Source: Candidatus Levybacteria bacterium RIFCSPLOWO2_12_FULL_39_17 (GTDB taxonomy: Bacteria > Patescibacteriota > Microgenomatia > Levybacterales > GWA1-39-11). Taken from it: a DNA stretch of 38,609 nt. The notes below the pieces were generated by a model. It saw nothing but the letters and a program-made list of their open reading frames with translations. It made no database searches and had not been told where the DNA came from. The translations under genes were made by a program, and so were the position numbers. The first letter of the stretch is position 1. Every line of letters begins with the position of its first letter. Location of the stretch: the NCBI GenBank assembly GCA_001782675.1, contig MFPJ01000001.1:1-38609 (forward strand). Direction: 5' to 3'. Below, piece by piece: positions 11,576-37,734 of this stretch.

Positions 11576-11609
11576 TTGCAACAATTTAAAAAATTCTGTT
11601 AAATAGAAT
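11576..11609 (+). promoter_or_regulatory. Promoter region of the SIMPL gene
   Basis: TAGAAT (11604-11609) ends 7 nt before the ATG, as expected for a leaderless message. TTGCAA (11576-11581) with TTAAAT (11599-11604) at 17 nt is an alternative reading that would give a leader of a few bases. Confidence 0.45.
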
Positions 11610-11616
11610 TACTGTT

Positions 11617-12360
11617 ATGAAACTTAAGGATTATCCTTATGCTCCATACTTAATCGCTGCGGCAACCTTTGTAATCACTCTTGGGGTTATAAAAACTTTT
11701 GACATTTCACTTCCTGTCTCTGTCACTACAAGAACTGCCTCGGGAGAACTGTCTGTAGTTGGGGAGGGCAAAGTTGATGTTGTTCCGGATACCGCATCGG
11801 TTCAAGCCGGAATAATTGTATCTGACGCAAAAACAGTTCAGGATGCTGAGAGGAAGATAAATGATGTCAATAATAAAATAGTTTCAGAACTTGAAAAATT
11901 AGGCATTGATAAAAAGGATATAAAAACTACAAATTATTCAATCAACCCAAACTATAATTATGACGGTGGAAAAAATAACATAACCGGTTATTATGGGAAT
12001 GCGACGCTTACGATAAAAGTTAAGGAGACTGAAAAATTGCCTCAGGTAATTAACGCCGCGACGCAAGCCGGAGCAAATCAGATATATGATACCCAATATA
12101 TATTAGACAACCCGTCAAAATACAGAGAAGAGGCGAGGGAAAAAGCAATTCAAAATGCTCGTGAACAAGCAGAGAAACTTGCAAATCAGCTAGGTATAAG
12201 ACTTGGAAAAATAGTCAATATTGTTGAATCCACACCCGATTCTATTATCCCCTACCCTGTTCTTAGATCCGAAGGGATAGGTTCGGCGGAAACTCCCAAT
12301 CTTTCACCGGGTACACAAACAATTTCAACAGTGGTTACATTATATTTTGAAAGAAAATGA
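11617..12360 (+). CDS. SIMPL-domain (DUF541) secreted or membrane-anchored protein
   Basis: This 247-residue protein has an N-terminal hydrophobic segment (about 9-27) that is a signal peptide or anchor. A SIMPL/DUF541 domain (about 45-245) follows. Hallmarks are GELSVVGEGKVDVVPDTASV, INDVNNKIVSELEKLGI, IKTTNYSINPNYNY, and the helix AREKAIQNAREQAEKLANQLG followed by LGKIVNI. The family forms periplasmic or cell-surface oligomers and has been linked to oxidative stress, but no reaction is established. It is a single-gene unit, convergent with the sortase gene, with only 29 bp between their stops. No clear terminator was seen there. Confidence 0.88.
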   Translation: MKLKDYPYAPYLIAAATFVITLGVIKTFDISLPVSVTTRTASGELSVVGEGKVDVVPDTASVQAGIIVSDAKTVQDAERKINDVNNKIVSELEKLGIDKKDIKTTNYSINPNYNYDGGKNNITGYYGNATLTIKVKETEKLPQVINAATQAGANQIYDTQYILDNPSKYREEAREKAIQNAREQAEKLANQLGIRLGKIVNIVESTPDSIIPYPVLRSEGIGSAETPNLSPGTQTISTVVTLYFERK

Positions 12361-13852: not shown

Positions 13853-13936
13853 AAATATTGTTTTGGGCTACCTTATTCTAGTTGCTAATTTTGTATATTG
13901 AAATTTTTCCTGTTGTTTGATTTAATAATTTAAGCA

Positions 13937-14042
13937 TTAAGAGTGCCCCGCCGGCTGGCGGGAGCCGGCAACCGTAAAAGTTAACGGTGCCAGTCCAAGA
14001 GGACGATGCGGTCCCGAGCCAGTCGAGGGACAAAACTTTTAA
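13937..14042 (+). ncRNA. SAM-I/IV-clan-like riboswitch upstream of metK
   Basis: The sequence holds the core GCCGGCAACCG followed by CGGTGCCAGTCC, close to the GGCAACC...GGTGCCAAUUCC core of SAM-I and related riboswitches. Stems seen by eye: closing P1 TTAAGAG/CTTTTAA (13937-13943 with 14036-14042), CCCGCC/GGCGGG (13947-13962 region), ACCGT/ACGGT, GTCC/GGAC and GTCCC/GGGAC. It lies directly before a terminator-like hairpin and metK, which makes SAM. The order of outer stems is not that of a textbook SAM-I aptamer, so it may be a variant. The expected effect is premature termination when SAM is high. Confidence 0.7.
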
Positions 14043-14069
14043 ACCTCTGGGATTTCAAGAGGTTTTTTT
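14042..14069 (+). terminator. Riboswitch expression-platform terminator before metK
   Basis: AACCTCT (14042-14048) pairs with AGAGGTT (14058-14064), and T runs from 14063 to 14069. The ATG of metK follows at once. The first base of the terminator stem coincides with the end of the putative P1 stem, as is usual when aptamer and terminator are coupled. Confidence 0.65.
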
Positions 14070-15185
14070 ATGCAAACAAACGGAAAAAATTATTTTTTTA
14101 CATCTGAATCCGTTTGCGCCGGCCATCCAGACAAAATTTGCGATCAAATAAGCGATGCTATTTTGGATTCGGTTTTATCACAAGATCCGTATGGAAGAAC
14201 TGCGATCGAATGTCTTGCCGGTGAAAACAGGTTGGTTATAGCCGGAGAGATTGGAACAAACGCAAAGGTGGATTTTGAATCTATCGCAAGAGAGCAGATC
14301 AAAAGGCTGGGCTATACAAATGGTGATTTTAATTTCTCTTGCAATTCCCCTATCCATGTTTATGTTCACGAACAATCTCCTGAAATTGCCGTGGGTGTTA
14401 AGAAAAAAGGAGCCGGGGATCAAGGAATGATGTTTGGATTTGCCTGTCGTGAAACCAAAAGCCTTATGCCCATACCCATAACTATTGCGCATGCCTTAAC
14501 TAAAAAGATCGATGAGGTCAGAGAAGGAAAAATCCTTTCCTATCTTAGACCTGACGGGAAAAGCCAGGTAACTATTGAGTATAAAAATGGGAAACCTTAT
14601 CGCGTAACAAAAGTGGTAATTGCCGTACCTCATAAAGAGTCTGTTGAACTTTCCGATGTCAAAAACGACCTTTATAAAAAGGTTGTTAAACCGGTTCTTG
14701 AAAAATTCGATTTCAAAATAAATAAAAAGGATCTTATTGTAAACGGTACAGGAATATGGCATAAAGGCGGACCCGCATCCGATTGCGGCCTGACGGGCAG
14801 AAAAATTGTTGTGGACACTTATGGAGGATATGCTCGGGTTGGCGGGGGAGCTTTTTCCGGCAAAGAACCCTCCAAGGTTGATCGCGGAGGAGCATATGCC
14901 GCGCGATACTTAGCAAAAAATATAGTTGCGCAAGGATTGGCCGATAAAGCGGAAGTGATACTTGCTTATTTTATTGGAGCAAAAAAACCCGTAATGCAGG
15001 AAGTGGAAACATTTGGGACGGAAAAGAAACCAAAAAAAATTATAAAAGATTTTATGAATAGGCTGCTTGACACTTCAGTTGCGGGTATTATTGATGGACT
15101 CGACTTGAGACGACCTATCTACCTTCAAACGGCCGCCTATGGTCATTTTGGCCGCCCTGAGTTCCCCTGGGAAAAAATAGTCTAA
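14070..15185 (+). CDS. metK: S-adenosylmethionine synthetase
   Basis: The enzyme makes SAM from ATP and methionine. The 371-residue protein has FTSESVCAGHPDKICDQISDA (ATP and metal site), GENRLVIAGEIGT, GAGDQGMMFGFA (the loop over the active site), GPASDCGLTGRKIVVDTYGG, GGGAFSGKEPSKVDRGGAYAAR and, near the end, the conserved-type LRRPIYLQTAAYGHFGR. Length is slightly below the ~385-400 residues usual in bacteria. It is preceded by a SAM-sensing-type leader and stands alone as a transcription unit. The ATG is placed immediately after the terminator U-tract, with no room for a Shine-Dalgarno site. Confidence 0.96.
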   Translation: MQTNGKNYFFTSESVCAGHPDKICDQISDAILDSVLSQDPYGRTAIECLAGENRLVIAGEIGTNAKVDFESIAREQIKRLGYTNGDFNFSCNSPIHVYVHEQSPEIAVGVKKKGAGDQGMMFGFACRETKSLMPIPITIAHALTKKIDEVREGKILSYLRPDGKSQVTIEYKNGKPYRVTKVVIAVPHKESVELSDVKNDLYKKVVKPVLEKFDFKINKKDLIVNGTGIWHKGGPASDCGLTGRKIVVDTYGGYARVGGGAFSGKEPSKVDRGGAYAARYLAKNIVAQGLADKAEVILAYFIGAKKPVMQEVETFGTEKKPKKIIKDFMNRLLDTSVAGIIDGLDLRRPIYLQTAAYGHFGRPEFPWEKIV

Positions 15186-15296: not shown

Positions 15297-15302
15297 TATA
15301 AT
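15297..15302 (+). promoter_or_regulatory. -10 box of the DUF2130 gene
   Basis: A perfect TATAAT ends 8 nt before the ATG at 15311, so the message would be leaderless or nearly so. No good -35 is seen. Confidence 0.5.
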
Positions 15303-17956: not shown

Positions 17957-17962
17957 TAAAAT
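17957..17962 (+). promoter_or_regulatory. -10 box for a leaderless zinc-ribbon gene
   Basis: TAAAAT ends exactly 6 nt before the ATG at 17969. No ribosome binding site fits in that gap. Confidence 0.5.
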
Positions 17963-17968
17963 AAGACT

Positions 17969-18256
17969 ATGGATGATAAGGAGAGATGCCAAAGTTGCGC
18001 AATGCCATTGGGCATAGGTCTTTATGGAATAAATGCGGATGGAAGCCTAAATCAAGAATACTGTAAGCTTTGTTATGAAAAAGGCACATTTAGAGAATCA
18101 AATTTAACTTTGGAAGAAATGATAGGAAGATCGTTTGCCTACATGGTTGATGAACTTGGCTTTTCAGAGGAAGAGGCGGAAAGTCTTTCAAAATCAATTA
18201 TTCCGAATCTTAAAAGGTGGAAACCCTCACAAATTGGCAAAAATCTTGATGATTGA
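17969..18256 (+). CDS. Zinc-ribbon protein of the zf-ribbon_2 type
   Basis: The 95-residue protein has CQSCAMPLG (residues 7-15) and YCKLCYEKGTF (about 31-41), two Cys pairs that make a zinc ribbon, with GINADGSLNQEYC between them. This order is typical of the small 'putative zinc ribbon' family (PF12674), often found alone or attached to transcriptional regulators. A helical tail (about 45-90) with EEMIGRSFAYMVDEL follows. The role is unknown. The next gene starts 30 bp downstream from its own -10 box, so the two are probably separate units. Confidence 0.8.
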   Translation: MDDKERCQSCAMPLGIGLYGINADGSLNQEYCKLCYEKGTFRESNLTLEEMIGRSFAYMVDELGFSEEEAESLSKSIIPNLKRWKPSQIGKNLDD

Positions 18257-18280
18257 AGAAGTTAAAAAAGATGTTATAAT
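18253..18280 (+). promoter_or_regulatory. Promoter for a leaderless SurA-N-like gene
   Basis: TTGAAG (18253-18258), a 16-nt spacer and a perfect TATAAT (18275-18280) end 6 nt before the ATG at 18287. The -35 box overlaps the stop codon of the preceding gene. Confidence 0.6.
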
Positions 18281-18286
18281 CATGAA

Positions 18287-18949
18287 ATGGTAGAAAAAAC
18301 GGAAAAAACAAAAAAACCGACAAGAAATTTAAAAAAATTTTTAAGGCTTTCTTTTTTTAAGAATCTTAAAGGAAAAAATATTTTATTAGTAATTCTTTTA
18401 ATTATCGTCATAGTTTTGATTGGACTTCTTAAAAATCAATTAGTTGTTGCTACGGTCAACGGAAAACAAATAAATAGAACCAAAGTCATAAGGGAGCTTG
18501 AGAAAAAAGAAGGCAAAAAAATTCTTGATTCAATAATTACCGAGGAATTAATAGCGTTAGCGGCGGAGAAAAGAAAAATCGGGGTTTCAAAACAAGAGAT
18601 AGAGGATGAGTTTAAAAAAATAGAAAAAAGCGTTTCAGCTCAGGGGCAGAATTTGGATCAGTTATTATTAGTTCAAAATTTTTCAAGAGAACAATTAAGA
18701 AAACAGATAAGAATCCAGCTTATTTTGAAAAAAATGGTAAATCCAAACGACATAAAAGTACAAGACCGCGAAGTTGAGGATTATATTGAAAAAAATAAAG
18801 AATCCATACCTGAAAATGCAAAAATGGATCAGGTAAAAAAACAGGCCAGGGAACAACTTGCTCAACAAAAACTAAATCAAAATATTGAAAAGTTAATTCA
18901 AGAATTACAGCAAAAAGCAAAAATACAATATTTCTTTAACTTCAACTAG
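18287..18949 (+). CDS. Membrane-anchored SurA N-terminal-like chaperone domain
   Basis: The 220-residue protein has a basic cytoplasmic N-terminus, one membrane helix (about 32-50, ILLVILLIIVIVLIGLL) and an extracytoplasmic helical domain. VATVNGKQINRTKVIRELEKKEG followed by ILDSIITEELIALAAEKRKIGVSKQEIEDEF is typical of the N-terminal chaperone domain of SurA/PrsA-type foldases. The parvulin (PpiC) domain is missing, so no proline isomerase activity is expected. It would act as a holdase for exported proteins; this is inference from the fold. Confidence 0.78.
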   Translation: MVEKTEKTKKPTRNLKKFLRLSFFKNLKGKNILLVILLIIVIVLIGLLKNQLVVATVNGKQINRTKVIRELEKKEGKKILDSIITEELIALAAEKRKIGVSKQEIEDEFKKIEKSVSAQGQNLDQLLLVQNFSREQLRKQIRIQLILKKMVNPNDIKVQDREVEDYIEKNKESIPENAKMDQVKKQAREQLAQQKLNQNIEKLIQELQQKAKIQYFFNFN

Positions 18950-18987
18950 AATTCACCTCTCAAAAACTTTATCATCCTGAGATATGC

Positions 18988-18993
18988 TAAGAT
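18988..18993 (+). promoter_or_regulatory. -10 box for a leaderless small membrane protein gene
   Basis: TAAGAT ends exactly 6 nt before the ATG at 19000. The -35 region is weak. Confidence 0.45.
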
Positions 18994-18999
18994 ATATTT

Positions 19000-19146
19000 A
19001 TGAGTAACTACTGGTTTAGATCAAAATACGGCCTCGGGTGGTATCCTACAACTTTTAAAGGATTGGCAGTTTTAATTCTTTATTTTTCTTTTCTTCTTTC
19101 TATCTGCTACATTACAGGAGAACCATTAAGAAAATTAAAAATCTAA
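19000..19146 (+). CDS. Small single-span membrane protein, 48 residues
   Basis: The frame encodes 48 residues: MSNYWFRSKYGLGWYPTTF, then one membrane helix (about 21-38, GLAVLILYFSFLLSICYI) and a basic end (LRKLKI). The aromatic start with WF, K/R, YG-x-GW-x-P followed by a helix is a pattern I recognise from a widespread family of tiny uncharacterised bacterial membrane proteins (W-F-K-P-K-x-Y-G-x-G-x-x-P). Its function is unknown. The 6-nt spacing from a -10 box supports expression, and the next gene has its own promoter. Confidence 0.75.
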   Translation: MSNYWFRSKYGLGWYPTTFKGLAVLILYFSFLLSICYITGEPLRKLKI

Positions 19147-19149
19147 AAA

Positions 19150-19179
19150 TAGACAAGGGATTCCACTCTGTAATATAAT
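19150..19179 (+). promoter_or_regulatory. Promoter for a leaderless nuclease-like gene
   Basis: TAGACA (19150-19155), an 18-nt spacer and a perfect TATAAT (19174-19179) end 6 nt before the ATG at 19186. Confidence 0.65.
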
Positions 19180-19185
19180 AGTCAG

Positions 19186-19938
19186 ATGTCCTCGTACTAT
19201 AACGGCAAAAGAAATAACAATCTTTATGTTCTTAATTCAAGCTTCCCTTATAAATTAAGCCGTACGAAGATAGAGTCTTTTATTTCTTGTCCTCGCTGTT
19301 TTTACATAGACAGAAGGCTTGGAATAGATAGGCCCCCCGGTTTTCCTTTCTCTTTAAATTCCGCAGTTGATAAGCTGCTTAAAAAGGAATTTGATGTTCA
19401 TAGAACAAGAAAAACCAGACATCCTCTAATGGAACATTATGGAATTGATGCTATTCCGGCAAGTCACGAGTTACTTGAGGAGTGGAGAAATCCATTTTCA
19501 GGAATTCAATTTCTTCATAAACCCACTAATTTTTTGATATTTGGAGGAGTGGATGATATATGGCAGGATTCTTCAGGGAAGCTAATTGTTGTGGACTATA
19601 AAGCCACCTCAAAAGATCAAGAAGTCAACATAGATGCGCAGTGGCAGCAAGGATACAAAAGGCAGATGGAAATTTATCAGTGGCTGTTTAGACAAAATGG
19701 ATTTGATGTTTCTAATACGGCATACTTTGTATATTGCAATGGAATCACAGACAAGGCAGCTTTTGACGGCAAATTGGAATTTGATGTAAAGATCATTCCA
19801 TATAAGGGAGACTATTCATGGGTTGAAAAAACCCTTCATGAAATCAAAGATTGTCTTGATAAGACCACTATACCTGCTTACAATGAAAATTGTGATTATT
19901 GTGTTTATAGGAAAAATACGCAGCTTGTGGAAGCATGA
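19186..19938 (+). CDS. PD-(D/E)XK superfamily nuclease, RecB/Cas4-like
   Basis: The 250-residue protein has the RecB-type nuclease order: LSRTKIESFISCPRCFYIDRR, then GVDDIWQDSSGKLIVVDYKAT with the Asp (GVDD) and D-x-K (VDYKAT) metal and catalytic residues, the Q-rich helix AQWQQGYKRQMEIYQWL, and CDYC near the end. Four Cys (CPRC near residue 35 and CDYC near 239) are placed as in Fe-S cluster nucleases of the Cas4/AddB type. No CRISPR array or other cas gene lies in the window, so a CRISPR role is not supported. It more likely works in DNA repair. Confidence 0.8.
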   Translation: MSSYYNGKRNNNLYVLNSSFPYKLSRTKIESFISCPRCFYIDRRLGIDRPPGFPFSLNSAVDKLLKKEFDVHRTRKTRHPLMEHYGIDAIPASHELLEEWRNPFSGIQFLHKPTNFLIFGGVDDIWQDSSGKLIVVDYKATSKDQEVNIDAQWQQGYKRQMEIYQWLFRQNGFDVSNTAYFVYCNGITDKAAFDGKLEFDVKIIPYKGDYSWVEKTLHEIKDCLDKTTIPAYNENCDYCVYRKNTQLVEA

Positions 19939-19939
19939 C

Positions 19940-19969
19940 TTGACAATGCCCTGATATTTTCTTTAAGAT
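19940..19969 (+). promoter_or_regulatory. Promoter for a leaderless coiled-coil protein gene
   Basis: A perfect TTGACA (19940-19945), an 18-nt spacer and TAAGAT (19964-19969) end 6 nt before the ATG at 19976. Confidence 0.7.
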
Positions 19970-19975
19970 TAATTT

Positions 19976-20599
19976 ATGTCAAAAATAATTATTGTTTTGT
20001 TTTTGAGCATTGTAATATTTTCCCCCATGACAGTTTTTGCCCAAACAAATTCAGCAACTTTAAAATCAAGACAAATTTTAAAAGAAAGACTCGATGCAAT
20101 AAAGGAAGAAAGGAAACAAAAAATTGAAGAATTTAAAGAAAAAATAGCCGCAATCAAGGATGAGAGAAAAAAGGCTCTGGTTGAAAAAATAGTAGAAAAA
20201 ATTTCCAATTCGAATGAAAGACTTACCGCTAGGATGTCCGCGGCGCTTGCCAGACTATCATCTATTCTTAAAAATCTGAGTGAAAAAGCAGCTAATCTTA
20301 AGGCGAGCGGGAAGGATACTAGCGAGCTTGAGAAGGCCATTTCTCAGGCAGAGACTGCAATCGAGGAAGCAAAATCAGCAGTTGCGGCCCAAGCTGAAAA
20401 AAAGTACTCTGCTAATTTAATAAATGATTCGACTCTAAGAAATGCAATTGGAGAAATGATCTCGCAGTTTAGAAAAGACCTAAGAGATGCGCACAAAAAA
20501 GTTGCAGCAGCAAGACAAGCAATTTCAAAGGCAGTTGCGGAATTGGCTCAATTAGGGGGAGTTAGAAATAGTGCAACCCAATCGGGTAACATGGACTAA
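19976..20599 (+). CDS. Secreted coiled-coil protein
   Basis: The 207-residue protein has a signal peptide (about 1-22, ending TVFAQ). The rest is almost entirely charged alpha-helix: LKERLDAIKEERKQKIEEF and similar stretches over about 28-200, with Ala-rich helices such as KKVAAARQAISKAVAELAQL. No catalytic motif or Cys is seen. Secreted helical proteins of this kind are common in candidate-phyla genomes, and their function is unknown. The next gene begins 1 nt after its stop, so the two are co-transcribed and may act together at the cell surface. Confidence 0.75.
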   Translation: MSKIIIVLFLSIVIFSPMTVFAQTNSATLKSRQILKERLDAIKEERKQKIEEFKEKIAAIKDERKKALVEKIVEKISNSNERLTARMSAALARLSSILKNLSEKAANLKASGKDTSELEKAISQAETAIEEAKSAVAAQAEKKYSANLINDSTLRNAIGEMISQFRKDLRDAHKKVAAARQAISKAVAELAQLGGVRNSATQSGNMD

Positions 20600-20600
20600 A

Positions 20601-21002
20601 ATGGAACCAAATCAAAACCCAACAACACAAGACCAAAATGTACAAGGACAGGCACAACCAAGCGCAGAGTCTACTCCACAAAGTGGAGGAACGCCTCCCA
20701 TTAATCCATCAATTCCCCCTGCGGGCCCTCCTGAGATTAAAACTCCATCCGGCACCGGTGGAAAAATTTTACTATTTATCTTAACAGGAATTGTTGTAAT
20801 TGTTCTGGTCTCCGCAATTTACTTTCTTGCTATAAAAAATAGCGTTCAACCACAGAATCCAAAAAATGCACCTATTCCACAAAAGACAGTAAGTCCTACG
20901 CCCGCTTCATCTGTGCAAATTCAGACGGAGACTGAAAGCATTGATCTTGGAAATCCTGAAGAAGATATTAAAAGCATTGAGCAGGACTATAACCAACTTT
21001 AA
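20601..21002 (+). CDS. Single-span membrane protein with Pro/Gln-rich N-terminus
   Basis: The 133-residue protein has a cytoplasmic tail rich in Gln, Pro and Thr (about 1-55), one membrane helix (about 57-80, KILLFILTGIVVIVLVSAIYFL) and a short extracytoplasmic tail. I do not recognise the family. The ATG at 20601 follows the previous stop by 1 nt. An in-frame ATG at 20571 would overlap the upstream gene and adds only ten atypical residues. The 140 bp after it contain the promoter of the acyltransferase gene and nothing else that I can support. Confidence 0.65.
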   Translation: MEPNQNPTTQDQNVQGQAQPSAESTPQSGGTPPINPSIPPAGPPEIKTPSGTGGKILLFILTGIVVIVLVSAIYFLAIKNSVQPQNPKNAPIPQKTVSPTPASSVQIQTETESIDLGNPEEDIKSIEQDYNQL

Positions 21003-21107
21003 TGCAGCTTGTAATCTTCCTTCTGGTGGGCCCTTGGCCTTCTCCCTAGTACTCTCTATCGTTTCCTCATTCTTGAACTCCCTGGCAAGATAAAGCAGAG
21101 CGCTTCA

Positions 21108-21136
21108 TTGACACATTTCTTCGAATAAACTATCCT
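21108..21136 (+). promoter_or_regulatory. Promoter for a leaderless acyltransferase gene
   Basis: A perfect TTGACA (21108-21113), a 17-nt spacer and TATCCT (21131-21136) end 6 nt before the ATG at 21143. Confidence 0.7.
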
Positions 21137-21142
21137 AAGAAC

Positions 21143-22000
21143 ATGGAAGAAGAATTCCTCGGCGGCAGTTCGCAAAATAATCCACAACAGGAAAGAAGCT
21201 CTTTCCAAGTAAGAGAAGTTTTTAAAGTTTCAAGATTTGATATTAAAAAGCCCACCGTTGAAGGGCTTGAAAAACTTCCCCCTACTCCATGTGTTGTTGC
21301 GACAACTCACTTATCAGATATTGATGTCCAAGAAGTTGCTATGGTGGTTGCCAATCAGAGAAAAATAGGGATAGTAAGCCAAGAAACAAACTTAACTTTT
21401 CCGCTTTATAAACCTTTCGTAGCTGCAATTGGAAAAGAAAATTTTTTCCCAATTACAAACGCCCCTTATAAGAAGGGCAAAACCGCGTATAGTCTAAGAC
21501 TTGATGATTTAAGGAAAATGCAAGAAGGAATTACGCAGGAAGGAAGAACAATGATTGTTGCGGGTCATAACCCAACTCATAACTGGCAGTTAGCTGAAAA
21601 GCCCGGAATGGCAGCGGTATTATTAGCACATATGGCAAATGTTCCGCTTGTCCCGGTAGCACTCGACATAGAATCAAAAACTCCCGTCGCCCAAACTACC
21701 AATAATTTGGCAAGACTTAAGAATCTTTTGAATAGACCTCACGCGAAAATAATTTTCGGTGACCCTATTGAACTTGCGCAACTTTCTGAAGAAAAATTAA
21801 AGGCAGCAGTTGGACTCTATAGTCCTGACCAAAGGAGGAGTATGACACCGGAACAAGCTCAAGAAGCCCGCGAAACTCTTATCACTCTTCAGAGAGAATC
21901 CGAACAAATGATGGAGGCTCTCGCTTCAAAACTTCCGCCCGAAAAACGCGGAAAGTGGGCAAGCCCTACACCTCCAAATCAAAATTCGAATCTAGTCTAA
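21143..22000 (+). CDS. PlsC-like 1-acylglycerol-3-phosphate acyltransferase family protein
   Basis: The 285-residue protein resembles glycerolipid acyltransferases. THLSDIDV (about 52-59) fits the catalytic H-x4-D motif, IGIVSQETNLTFPLYKPFV resembles the second block, and EGRTMIVAGHNPTH stands where the family has its FPEG(T/G)-type block, in weakened form. VPLVPVALDI is the typical fourth block. There is no obvious membrane helix. The C-terminal 24 codons are duplicated at 22816-22887. The stop codon lies inside a palindromic repeat (21992-22021), so the 3' end is probably shaped by that repeat. The acyl acceptor is not known. Confidence 0.7.
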   Translation: MEEEFLGGSSQNNPQQERSSFQVREVFKVSRFDIKKPTVEGLEKLPPTPCVVATTHLSDIDVQEVAMVVANQRKIGIVSQETNLTFPLYKPFVAAIGKENFFPITNAPYKKGKTAYSLRLDDLRKMQEGITQEGRTMIVAGHNPTHNWQLAEKPGMAAVLLAHMANVPLVPVALDIESKTPVAQTTNNLARLKNLLNRPHAKIIFGDPIELAQLSEEKLKAAVGLYSPDQRRSMTPEQAQEARETLITLQRESEQMMEALASKLPPEKRGKWASPTPPNQNSNLV

Positions 22001-23218: not shown

Positions 23219-23514
23219 AGCTTATACTCTTTTAAACGATCTTCGGCAATTTTTATTTCATTAGTCGGCGTCTTTTGAGTTTTCTTTTTAAATACATTAA
23301 CTATTATCATCTCCTGATTAACAATTCCAAATAAGACTCTAATATTACCTGGCCGCAATTCCCATAGATTATTTTTTAACTTTTTTAAATATTTTCCGGA
23401 TAAAATAAATTTGTGTTCCCGAAATAAATTAATATAACCTCTAATCCTTGCTTGATCCGTATCAGAGAAAGAATTATAAACTTTTTTAACTCTTTCATCT
23501 AATGTTGCCTTCAT
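23215..23514 (-). CDS. RelE/HigB-family toxin
   Basis: The 99-residue protein has the RelE-type fold pattern: YNSFSDTDQARIRGYINLF, then YLKKLKNNLWELRPGNIRVLFGIVN, IIVNVFKKKTQKTPTNEIKIAEDRLKEY. The block LWELR...IRVLF...VFKKK is typical of HigB (Gp49-like) toxins, which cut mRNA on the ribosome. Toxin first and antitoxin second, with a 4-bp overlap, fits higBA. Confidence 0.88.
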   Translation of the reverse strand: MKATLDERVKKVYNSFSDTDQARIRGYINLFREHKFILSGKYLKKLKNNLWELRPGNIRVLFGIVNQEMIIVNVFKKKTQKTPTNEIKIAEDRLKEYKL

Positions 23515-33272: not shown

Positions 33273-33301
33273 ATGGTACCAAAACAGGGGGGGTAAAACA
33301 A
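33273..33301 (-). promoter_or_regulatory. Promoter for the leaderless pilin gene
   Basis: On the minus strand TTGTTT (33301-33296), a 17-nt spacer and TACCAT (33278-33273) end 6 nt before the ATG at 33266. It adjoins heptad array C. Confidence 0.55.
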
Positions 33302-36710: not shown

Positions 36711-36716
36711 TAAACT
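36711..36716 (+). promoter_or_regulatory. -10 box of the small membrane protein gene at 36723
   Basis: TAAACT ends 6 nt before the ATG. TTGACG (36690-36695) is upstream at a short 15-nt spacing. It is divergent from the hrcA promoter. Confidence 0.4.
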
Positions 36717-37147: not shown

Positions 37148-37176
37148 TTGTTTTTAAAATATCGAATTACTATAAT
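37148..37176 (+). promoter_or_regulatory. Promoter defining a GTG start
   Basis: TTGTTT (37148-37153), 17 nt, perfect TATAAT (37171-37176), then 6 nt and GTG at 37183. The spacing matches the leaderless genes of this window and places the start downstream of the in-frame ATG at 37135. Confidence 0.65.
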
Positions 37177-37182
37177 GTTTTC

Positions 37183-37734
37183 GTGACTTCTGAAATTTTG
37201 ACTGCTGATAATCAACTCGTTTTTTCCTCAAGAGGATTAAGGAGACTTGGAAAAGAAGTAGCACGCGTCTCGGATGCTAGAAGAAGAGTAGGATCCTTAT
37301 TTACCACGATAGAACAATCCACCATGGAGGGTGATACACGATTCGTATTATGGTCCTCTATTAATAGACGGAGGCGAAGAGTATTTGTTCCAACTTGGTA
37401 TGGAGATGTAGAAGATGGAATCGAAGCATTAGCTTTTTGGCCGGAAAATGCAGGTAGTAGGTTATCTAAAAAAATTTTGTGGATAGAGAGAAATTTTCTT
37501 GATGAAGGAAAAACCGAACCTCATGAAGGGCGACCCTTTAGGACATACCTTGTAACCGCAGAAGAACGACATGTTCAGCTACTTTATGATACGCCCTCTC
37601 GTCGCCATTTAGAAGAAATATCGCGAGAATGTGCGGGAGCATATGATTTCGACTCGAAGCGTAAAGAAATTTCTCCTGTTGTAGCTGCAAGATTTATAGG
37701 AGAGGTAGATACAAAAACTGTTACTCCCTTCTAA
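37183..37734 (+). CDS. Unknown soluble protein (GTG start)
   Basis: The protein has 183 residues when read from GTG 37183 (MTSEILTADNQLVFSSRG). An ATG at 37135 would add 16 residues, but it lies upstream of the promoter. There is no signal peptide or membrane helix. Features seen: an Arg-rich run INRRRRRVFVPTWYG, GIEALAFWPENAG, EPHEGRPFRTYLVTAEE, and a helical end PSRRHLEEISRECAGAYDF. I do not recognise a family or catalytic motif. It stands alone between repeat copy 3 and metG, each with its own promoter. Confidence 0.6.
   Translation: MTSEILTADNQLVFSSRGLRRLGKEVARVSDARRRVGSLFTTIEQSTMEGDTRFVLWSSINRRRRRVFVPTWYGDVEDGIEALAFWPENAGSRLSKKILWIERNFLDEGKTEPHEGRPFRTYLVTAEERHVQLLYDTPSRRHLEEISRECAGAYDFDSKRKEISPVVAARFIGEVDTKTVTPF

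What the first reader, a model, noticed from the sequence alone, without database searches (positions are those of the whole stretch)
17957..21145. Systematic leaderless gene starts: -10 box ends 6 nt before the start codon
For genes at 17969, 18287, 19000, 19186, 19976, 21143, 36723, 37183 (GTG) and 33266 (minus), a -10 hexamer ends exactly 6 nt before the start codon; at 11617 and 15311 the gap is 7-8 nt. Transcription would begin at or next to the first base of the start codon. Genes inside operons sometimes keep a ribosome binding site (GGAGGG before 1880). Leaderless translation may therefore be the default for first genes in this lineage, and the rule corrects start calls, for example the GTG at 37183.
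Basis: seen in the sequence. Interest (0 to 1): 0.6.

Follow-up and report, generated by a model that had tools for sequence, protein, structure and literature searches.

The report
Leaderless gene starts in a Patescibacterium
In this tiny, uncultivated bacterium about a third of operon-leading genes carry a promoter placed so that the messenger RNA should begin at, or within a few bases of, the start codon, with no ribosome-binding leader; this type of gene start was already known elsewhere but appears undocumented in this large bacterial group.

Summary
All nine named genes have a TANNNT hexamer ending exactly 6 nt before the start (7 and 8 nt at 11617 and 15311). The window lies in a 907-kb Patescibacteria genome. 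In a 248-kb sample, a -10 box (at least 5/6 of TATAAT) ends 6-8 nt before the start in 34 of 125 first genes (3.5 expected); for full promoters it is 18 against 0.1. An independent -35 box peaks at exactly 17 bp. Genome-wide, TATAAT-N6-ATG occurs 47 times against 15.7. E. coli shows no excess. Corrections: the spacing is 6-8 nt, not strictly 6; about a third of first genes (50-60% of those with a recognisable promoter) look leaderless or nearly so, so it is the commonest mode, not a universal rule. Leadered counterexamples lie in the window, including a SAM riboswitch gene. Shine-Dalgarno motifs are almost unused although the anti-Shine-Dalgarno is intact. AUG is strongly preferred; GUG is a minor leaderless start in this order. 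Many other Patescibacteria families show the signal, some lack it. Verdict: known kind (TA-led leaderless genes), apparently undescribed in Patescibacteria. No transcript ends could be mapped.

The parts
17957..17962 (+). -10 TAAAAT, 6 nt before ATG 17969 (zinc-ribbon protein, PF12674)
   Evidence: sequence; score; Pfam
18253..18258 (+). -35 TTGAAG, 16 bp before the -10 of 18287
18275..18280 (+). extended -10 TGTTATAAT, hexamer 6 nt before ATG 18287 (SurA-N-like protein, PF13624)
18988..18993 (+). weak -10 TAAGAT with TGn, 6 nt before ATG 19000 (48-aa membrane-like protein)
   Evidence: weakest of the nine, other hexamers nearby score higher
19150..19155 (+). -35 TAGACA, 18 bp before the -10 of 19186
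19174..19179 (+). -10 TATAAT, 6 nt before ATG 19186 (conserved Patescibacteria protein; match begins at residue 1 in about 60 of 80 relatives)
19940..19945 (+). -35 TTGACA, 18 bp before the -10 of 19976
19964..19969 (+). -10 TAAGAT, 6 nt before ATG 19976
21108..21113 (+). -35 TTGACA, 17 bp before the -10 of 21143
21131..21136 (+). -10 TATCCT, 6 nt before ATG 21143 (acyltransferase-like, PF01553)
36711..36716 (+). -10 TAAACT with TGn, 6 nt before ATG 36723
37148..37153 (+). -35-like TTGTTT, 17 bp before the -10 of 37183
37171..37176 (+). -10 TATAAT, 6 nt before GTG 37183
   Evidence: start not confirmed by homology
33273..33278 (-). -10 TACCAT with TGn, 6 nt before ATG 33266 (minus)
11604..11609 (+). 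-10 TAGAAT, 7 nt before ATG 11617 (SIMPL/DUF541); a better-scoring site lies at gap 22
15297..15302 (+). -10 TATAAT, 8 nt before ATG 15311 (DUF2130)
13929..14047 (+). SAM-I/IV riboswitch upstream of ATG 14070: a leadered counterexample
   Evidence: Rfam RF01725, 42.8 bits

Best explanation
These are ordinary housekeeping-sigma promoters (TTGACA, 17 bp, TATAAT, sometimes TGn-extended) fused to the coding sequence. RNA polymerase should start at the A of the AUG (gap 6) or 1-3 nt before it (gaps 7-9), giving leaderless or near-leaderless mRNAs. The ribosome would then initiate on the 5'-terminal AUG without a Shine-Dalgarno contact. About one third of first genes use this layout, 50-60% of those with a recognisable promoter; the others have short or long leaders, and very few use an SD. 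Shown here: the promoter signals, their phase to the start codon, their enrichment at first genes, the preference for AUG, and the lack of SD. Inferred: the transcript 5' ends, the sigma factor, and the route of ribosome binding.
For: Strong -10 at gap 6-8 in 34/125 first genes against 3.5 expected; internal genes 6/67 against 1.2. An independent -35: TTGACA matches of at least 4/6 at spacer exactly 17 in 16-19 of 42-49 sites, against about 2 at most other spacers. Full promoters at gap 6-8 are 18 against 0.1 in shuffles, and at 9-11 they are 5 against 0.1. Whole genome 47 against 15.7 (p 1e-10), and five relatives of the same order have ratios 2.7-6.1. Specific to ATG: own sample ATG 43 against 6.5 expected, while TTG, CTG, ATT, ATA and ATC show none. 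Starts confirmed by an aligned ATG in a homologue: 6/22 against 0.2. Genes with a near -10 almost never have an SD: in family f22 1/35 and 1/27, against 68/115 and 57/112 in other genes. E. coli control at background, Deinococcus control 10/83 against 1.5 for TANNNT.
Against: No RNA data: 5' ends are not mapped. Starts were called by an ad hoc gene finder (5'-most ATG). Five of the nine named hexamers match only 4/6. Several window genes have clear promoters at gaps 11-46 or a riboswitch leader. Homologues of the best-supported gene (19186) mostly do not keep the layout at this evolutionary distance: 12 of 80 have a strong -10 as best site at gap 6.
Confidence: 0.9

Rival explanations
1. The hexamers are chance by-products of AT-rich, unstructured sequence kept in front of start codons for non-SD initiation on leadered mRNAs; they are not promoters.
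For: The genome is 38% GC, upstream regions are AT-rich, SD is nearly unused, and five of nine named hexamers match only 4/6.
Against: AT-richness predicts neither the 6-8 nt phase, nor a TTGACA box at exactly 17 bp, nor TGn extensions (31/35 in G109), nor the lower rate at internal genes. The gap profile falls to background at gaps 0-5 and beyond about 12.
Confidence: 0.04
2. The promoters are real but the start codons are miscalled: translation starts at a downstream codon and the mRNAs have normal leaders.
For: Starts were called as the 5'-most ATG; at 23514 (minus) a promoter ends 1 nt before the called ATG, so that call is probably wrong.
Against: Enrichment is specific to ATG codons at the 6-8 nt phase, persists in starts confirmed by aligned homologues (6/22 against 0.2), and downstream decoy ATGs show 1.9%. 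No SD class is enriched that would serve a downstream start.
Confidence: 0.05
3. These are secondary, internal promoters; the main mRNA of each gene is leadered and starts further upstream.
For: Some genes also have promoter-like sites further upstream (gaps 30-59: 20 against 7.8 at the low threshold).
Against: At the strict threshold the near site is the dominant one (18 against 0.1), and strictly divergent genes show it too.
Confidence: 0.1

Closest known systems
TA-led leaderless genes of bacteria (Zheng et al. 2011, PMC3160421)
   Same: TANNNT/TATAAT about 12 bp upstream of the start counted from its first T, no SD, mixed with other modes in one genome
   Different: That survey covered 953 bacterial genomes and reported over 20% leaderless genes for Actinobacteria and Deinococcus-Thermus; a search of its text for TM7 or candidate division found nothing. 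Here SD genes are also scarce.
-10 motif adjacent to ORFs in Deinococcus-Thermus (Zhong et al. 2025, PMC12340547)
   Same: -10 motif mostly 6-7 bp before the ORF, about 30% of ORFs, start-call corrections follow from it
   Different: Deinococcus keeps a clear GGAG ribosome-binding class; the window's lineage shows almost none, and many near -10 boxes here carry a consensus -35 at 17 bp.
Non-SD initiation in low-SD phyla such as Bacteroidota (Nakagawa et al. 2017, PMC5397173; StartLink paper PMC9581028)
   Same: SD motifs at background, AT-rich upstream of internal genes, anti-SD tail of 16S intact here, bS21 present
   Different: A precise -10/-35 promoter phase to the AUG explains about a third of first genes here; whether internal genes use the Bacteroidota mechanism is untested.

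Membership tests
TA-led leaderless genes (bacterial) | TANNNT -10 box whose first T lies about 12 bp upstream of the start | tested here: met
   31/125 first genes at gap 6 against about 4-5 per position; 55/125 at gaps 6-8 against 13.0
TA-led leaderless genes (bacterial) | Exceeds shuffled upstream sequence | tested here: met
   18 against 0.1 and 31 against 0.7 in dinucleotide shuffles
TA-led leaderless genes (bacterial) | No SD in the same upstream region | tested here: met
   SD in 2/42 in own genome; 1/35 and 1/27 in G109 and G245
TA-led leaderless genes (bacterial) | mRNA 5' end at the start codon | not testable with these tools
   no RNA data; no Patescibacteria start-site map found in the held library
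Deinococcus-type -10 motif adjacent to ORFs | -10 motif 6-7 bp before about 30% of ORFs, with a separate RBS class | tested here: inconclusive
   Spacing and share similar (27-44% of first genes); RBS class absent in own sample, present in f22 genomes
SD-led initiation | SD motif enriched just upstream of starts | tested here: not met
   Own genome 13/125 against 14/125 and 11/67 against 10/67; small whole-genome excess 130 against 97
Bacteroidota-like non-SD initiation | Intact anti-SD, SD unused, anti-SD masked by bS21/bS18/bS6 (masking from general knowledge) | tested here: inconclusive
   Anti-SD CACCTCCTTTC intact, bS21 in all 21 relatives; masking not testable

The most novel reading that the evidence does not exclude
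Leaderless initiation is a major, lineage-sorted mode across Patescibacteria: families switch between leaderless plus SD (f22), leaderless with SD nearly abandoned despite an intact anti-SD (the window's family), SD only (f64, f75), and neither signal (f21, part of f88). The phylum would then be a natural laboratory for how bacteria lose SD use.
Probability: 0.6. Interest if true: 0.55.

Novelty: new member of a known kind. Interest (0 to 1): 0.45.

Why it matters
Patescibacteria are a very large part of bacterial diversity and are known mainly from genomes. If a third or more of their first genes are leaderless and SD is rare, gene callers that assume SD sites will misplace starts, and promoters and start codons can be read directly from sequence as one unit. 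It also bears on drug sensitivity (some antibiotics act differently on leaderless initiation, as the StartLink paper PMC9581028 notes) and on how translation works with reduced ribosomes. Lineages within one phylum that differ in SD and leaderless use offer a direct comparative test.

Tried and rejected
A raw scan of every ATG in 248 kb was dominated by background; restricting to called genes was needed. The reversed-pattern control of the genome search is uneven between families, so a gap control (14-28 nt) was run instead. A 5'-most-ATG positive control failed in GC-rich Deinococcus, probably because the first ATG is often too far upstream or the start is GTG; annotated starts were used. A DnaK query typed to find a control plasmid was not useful. 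Loss of bS21, a bS1-like protein or IF3 as a cause was rejected: all are present in own genome and relatives, in SD-using and SD-poor lineages alike (the rpsA matches are below the family cut-off). Homology support for the 37183 start was sought and not found.
Full report
WHAT WAS CLAIMED.

WHERE IT IS. The window is one contig of a 907,069-base, 47-contig, 98.9% complete genome. The protein at 19186-19938 finds relatives at 56-65% identity across Patescibacteria lineages (Yanofskybacteria, Levybacteria, WWE3, Berkelbacteria, Kazan and others), so this is a Patescibacteria (CPR) genome; the family was not named. The single 16S gene is complete and ends GGATCACCTCCTTTC, an intact anti-Shine-Dalgarno.

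THE NAMED SITES. All nine hexamers are where stated, and 11617 and 15311 have gaps of 7 and 8. Using one point per match to TATAAT and TTGACA, half a point off for a 16 or 18 bp spacer, and one for TGn, five named sites score 9 or more (18287, 19186, 19976, 21143, 37183). Three score 7-8 (17969, 33266, 36723), and 19000 scores 5.5. 15311 scores 8.5 and 11617 scores 6, with a better site at gap 22. Taken alone the list is partly chosen by eye; the genome test below is what carries the claim.

GENOME TEST. I took 15 stretches (209 kb) besides the window and called genes by codon usage, with the 5'-most ATG as start, so the start was not chosen by its upstream sequence. Among first genes (divergent neighbour, or more than 25 nt from the upstream gene) 34 of 125 have a -10 of at least 5/6 at gap 6-8, against 3.5 expected from other gaps; internal genes 6/67 against 1.2; in-frame decoy ATGs 1.9%; intergenic decoy ATGs 2.8%. 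With the looser TANNNT it is 55/125 against 13.0. About 50-60% of recognisable promoters of first genes therefore put the start of transcription within a few nt of the AUG (57% by this count in the own genome, about 52% in the same-family genome G278).

INDEPENDENT CHECKS. (a) At near sites chosen only by the -10, TTGACA matches peak at exactly 17 bp. (b) The signal is specific to ATG; TTG, CTG, ATT, ATA and ATC at the same phase show none. (c) In starts confirmed by a homologue with an aligned ATG it is 6/22 against 0.2. (d) E. coli with annotated starts gives 0/97 strong and 3/97 TANNNT (background 5.2); Deinococcus plasmids give 10/83 TANNNT against 1.5. (e) Whole-genome TATAAT-N6-ATG is 47 against 15.7 per control gap, p about 1e-10.

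CORRECTIONS. The gap is 6 to 8 (6:18, 7:15, 8:9, 9:5, 5:2). Leadered first genes exist in the same window: 850, 11036, 36632, 22736, 515, and 14070, which follows a SAM-I/IV riboswitch at 13929-14047. Internal genes do not as a rule keep an RBS: SD four-mers are 11/67 against 10/67 background, and in first genes 13/125 against 14/125. The GGAGGG before 1880 is there, but as a class it is not above chance in the sample. Genome-wide, GGAGG-N5-9-ATG is 130 against 97, so a few dozen SD genes may remain. GUG: three own-genome ORFs without an early ATG have a -10 exactly 6 nt before a GTG, including 37183 (3 of 9 GTG codons against 0.3). TATAAT-N6-GTG is 70 against 42 in six genomes of the order but 171 against 164 over 20 genomes and depleted in family f22. 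GUG leaderless starts are thus a minor feature of this order.

HOW FAR IT REACHES. In a systematic sample of 75 of the 380 phylum genomes, total counts are 1857 against 702 for the reversed pattern, 35 genomes are significant at p below 0.01, and only 2 fall below control. With the stricter gap control on 40 hand-picked genomes, families f22 (ratio 3.7-8.7), f54, f9 and the window's order (2.7-6.1) are strong; f21, f57, f75 and one of two f88 genomes show none. SD use varies separately: f22 has both modes, mutually exclusive gene by gene (SD in 1/35 near -10 genes against 68/115 of the rest in G109); f64 and f75 have SD only; f1 has leaderless starts with little SD. In f22 the near promoters are mostly extended -10 (TGn in 31/35 and 22/27).

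MECHANISM. Shown: promoter anatomy, phase to AUG, first-gene bias, scarcity of SD. Inferred: a housekeeping sigma factor recognises the promoter, RNA polymerase starts on or just before the A of AUG, and ribosomes load on the 5'-terminal AUG as established for leaderless mRNAs in other bacteria (general knowledge). IF3, bS21 and a bS1-like protein of about 400 aa are present in the own genome and relatives, so loss of initiation components is not the explanation. How internal, SD-less genes are started (coupling, A-rich upstream stretch) was not resolved.

KNOWN OR NEW. Leaderless TA-led genes are well established (PMC3160421; PMC12340547; PMC5397173; PMC9581028 cites 21.6% of bacterial species as predicted users). 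In the held open-access library no paper found joins leaderless initiation to Patescibacteria or CPR beyond passing citations and a remark that YchF, linked to leaderless translation, is conserved there (PMC12641178), and none reports a Patescibacteria start-site map. The GeneMarkS-2 paper was not held and most subscription journals are missing, so prior description cannot be excluded. I file it as a new member of a known kind.

Noticed in passing
window 13929-14070: A SAM-I/IV riboswitch whose terminator-like hairpin and T-run directly abut the ATG at 14070, without SD.
   Followed up: partly
window 515 (minus), L002:18382, L014:6926, L012:10407 (minus): Terminator-like hairpin plus T-run ending within 10 nt of the start codon in 7 of 125 first genes of this genome (0-3 in shifted controls), none in G278 or G109; possibly attenuators or riboswitch platforms of unknown ligand.
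   Followed up: partly
window 23514 (minus): A TTGACA-18-TAAAAT promoter ends 1 nt before the called ATG, so the true start is probably further downstream.
   Followed up: no
window upstream of 35858, 35301 and 24550 (minus): Intergenic spacers made of degenerate repeated phrases (TTGACAATTGACAACTGACA; ATACTTGATACTTACTACTTAATAC).
   Followed up: no
own-genome first and internal genes: The base just before the ATG is T in 52-57% and G in only 1-6% of genes, in first and internal genes alike.
   Followed up: no
L098-L103 and L107-L118 (genomes G109, G245): A distant Patescibacteria family uses mostly extended -10 (TGnTATAAT) leaderless promoters alongside a strong SD class, with the two almost mutually exclusive gene by gene.
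   Followed up: partly
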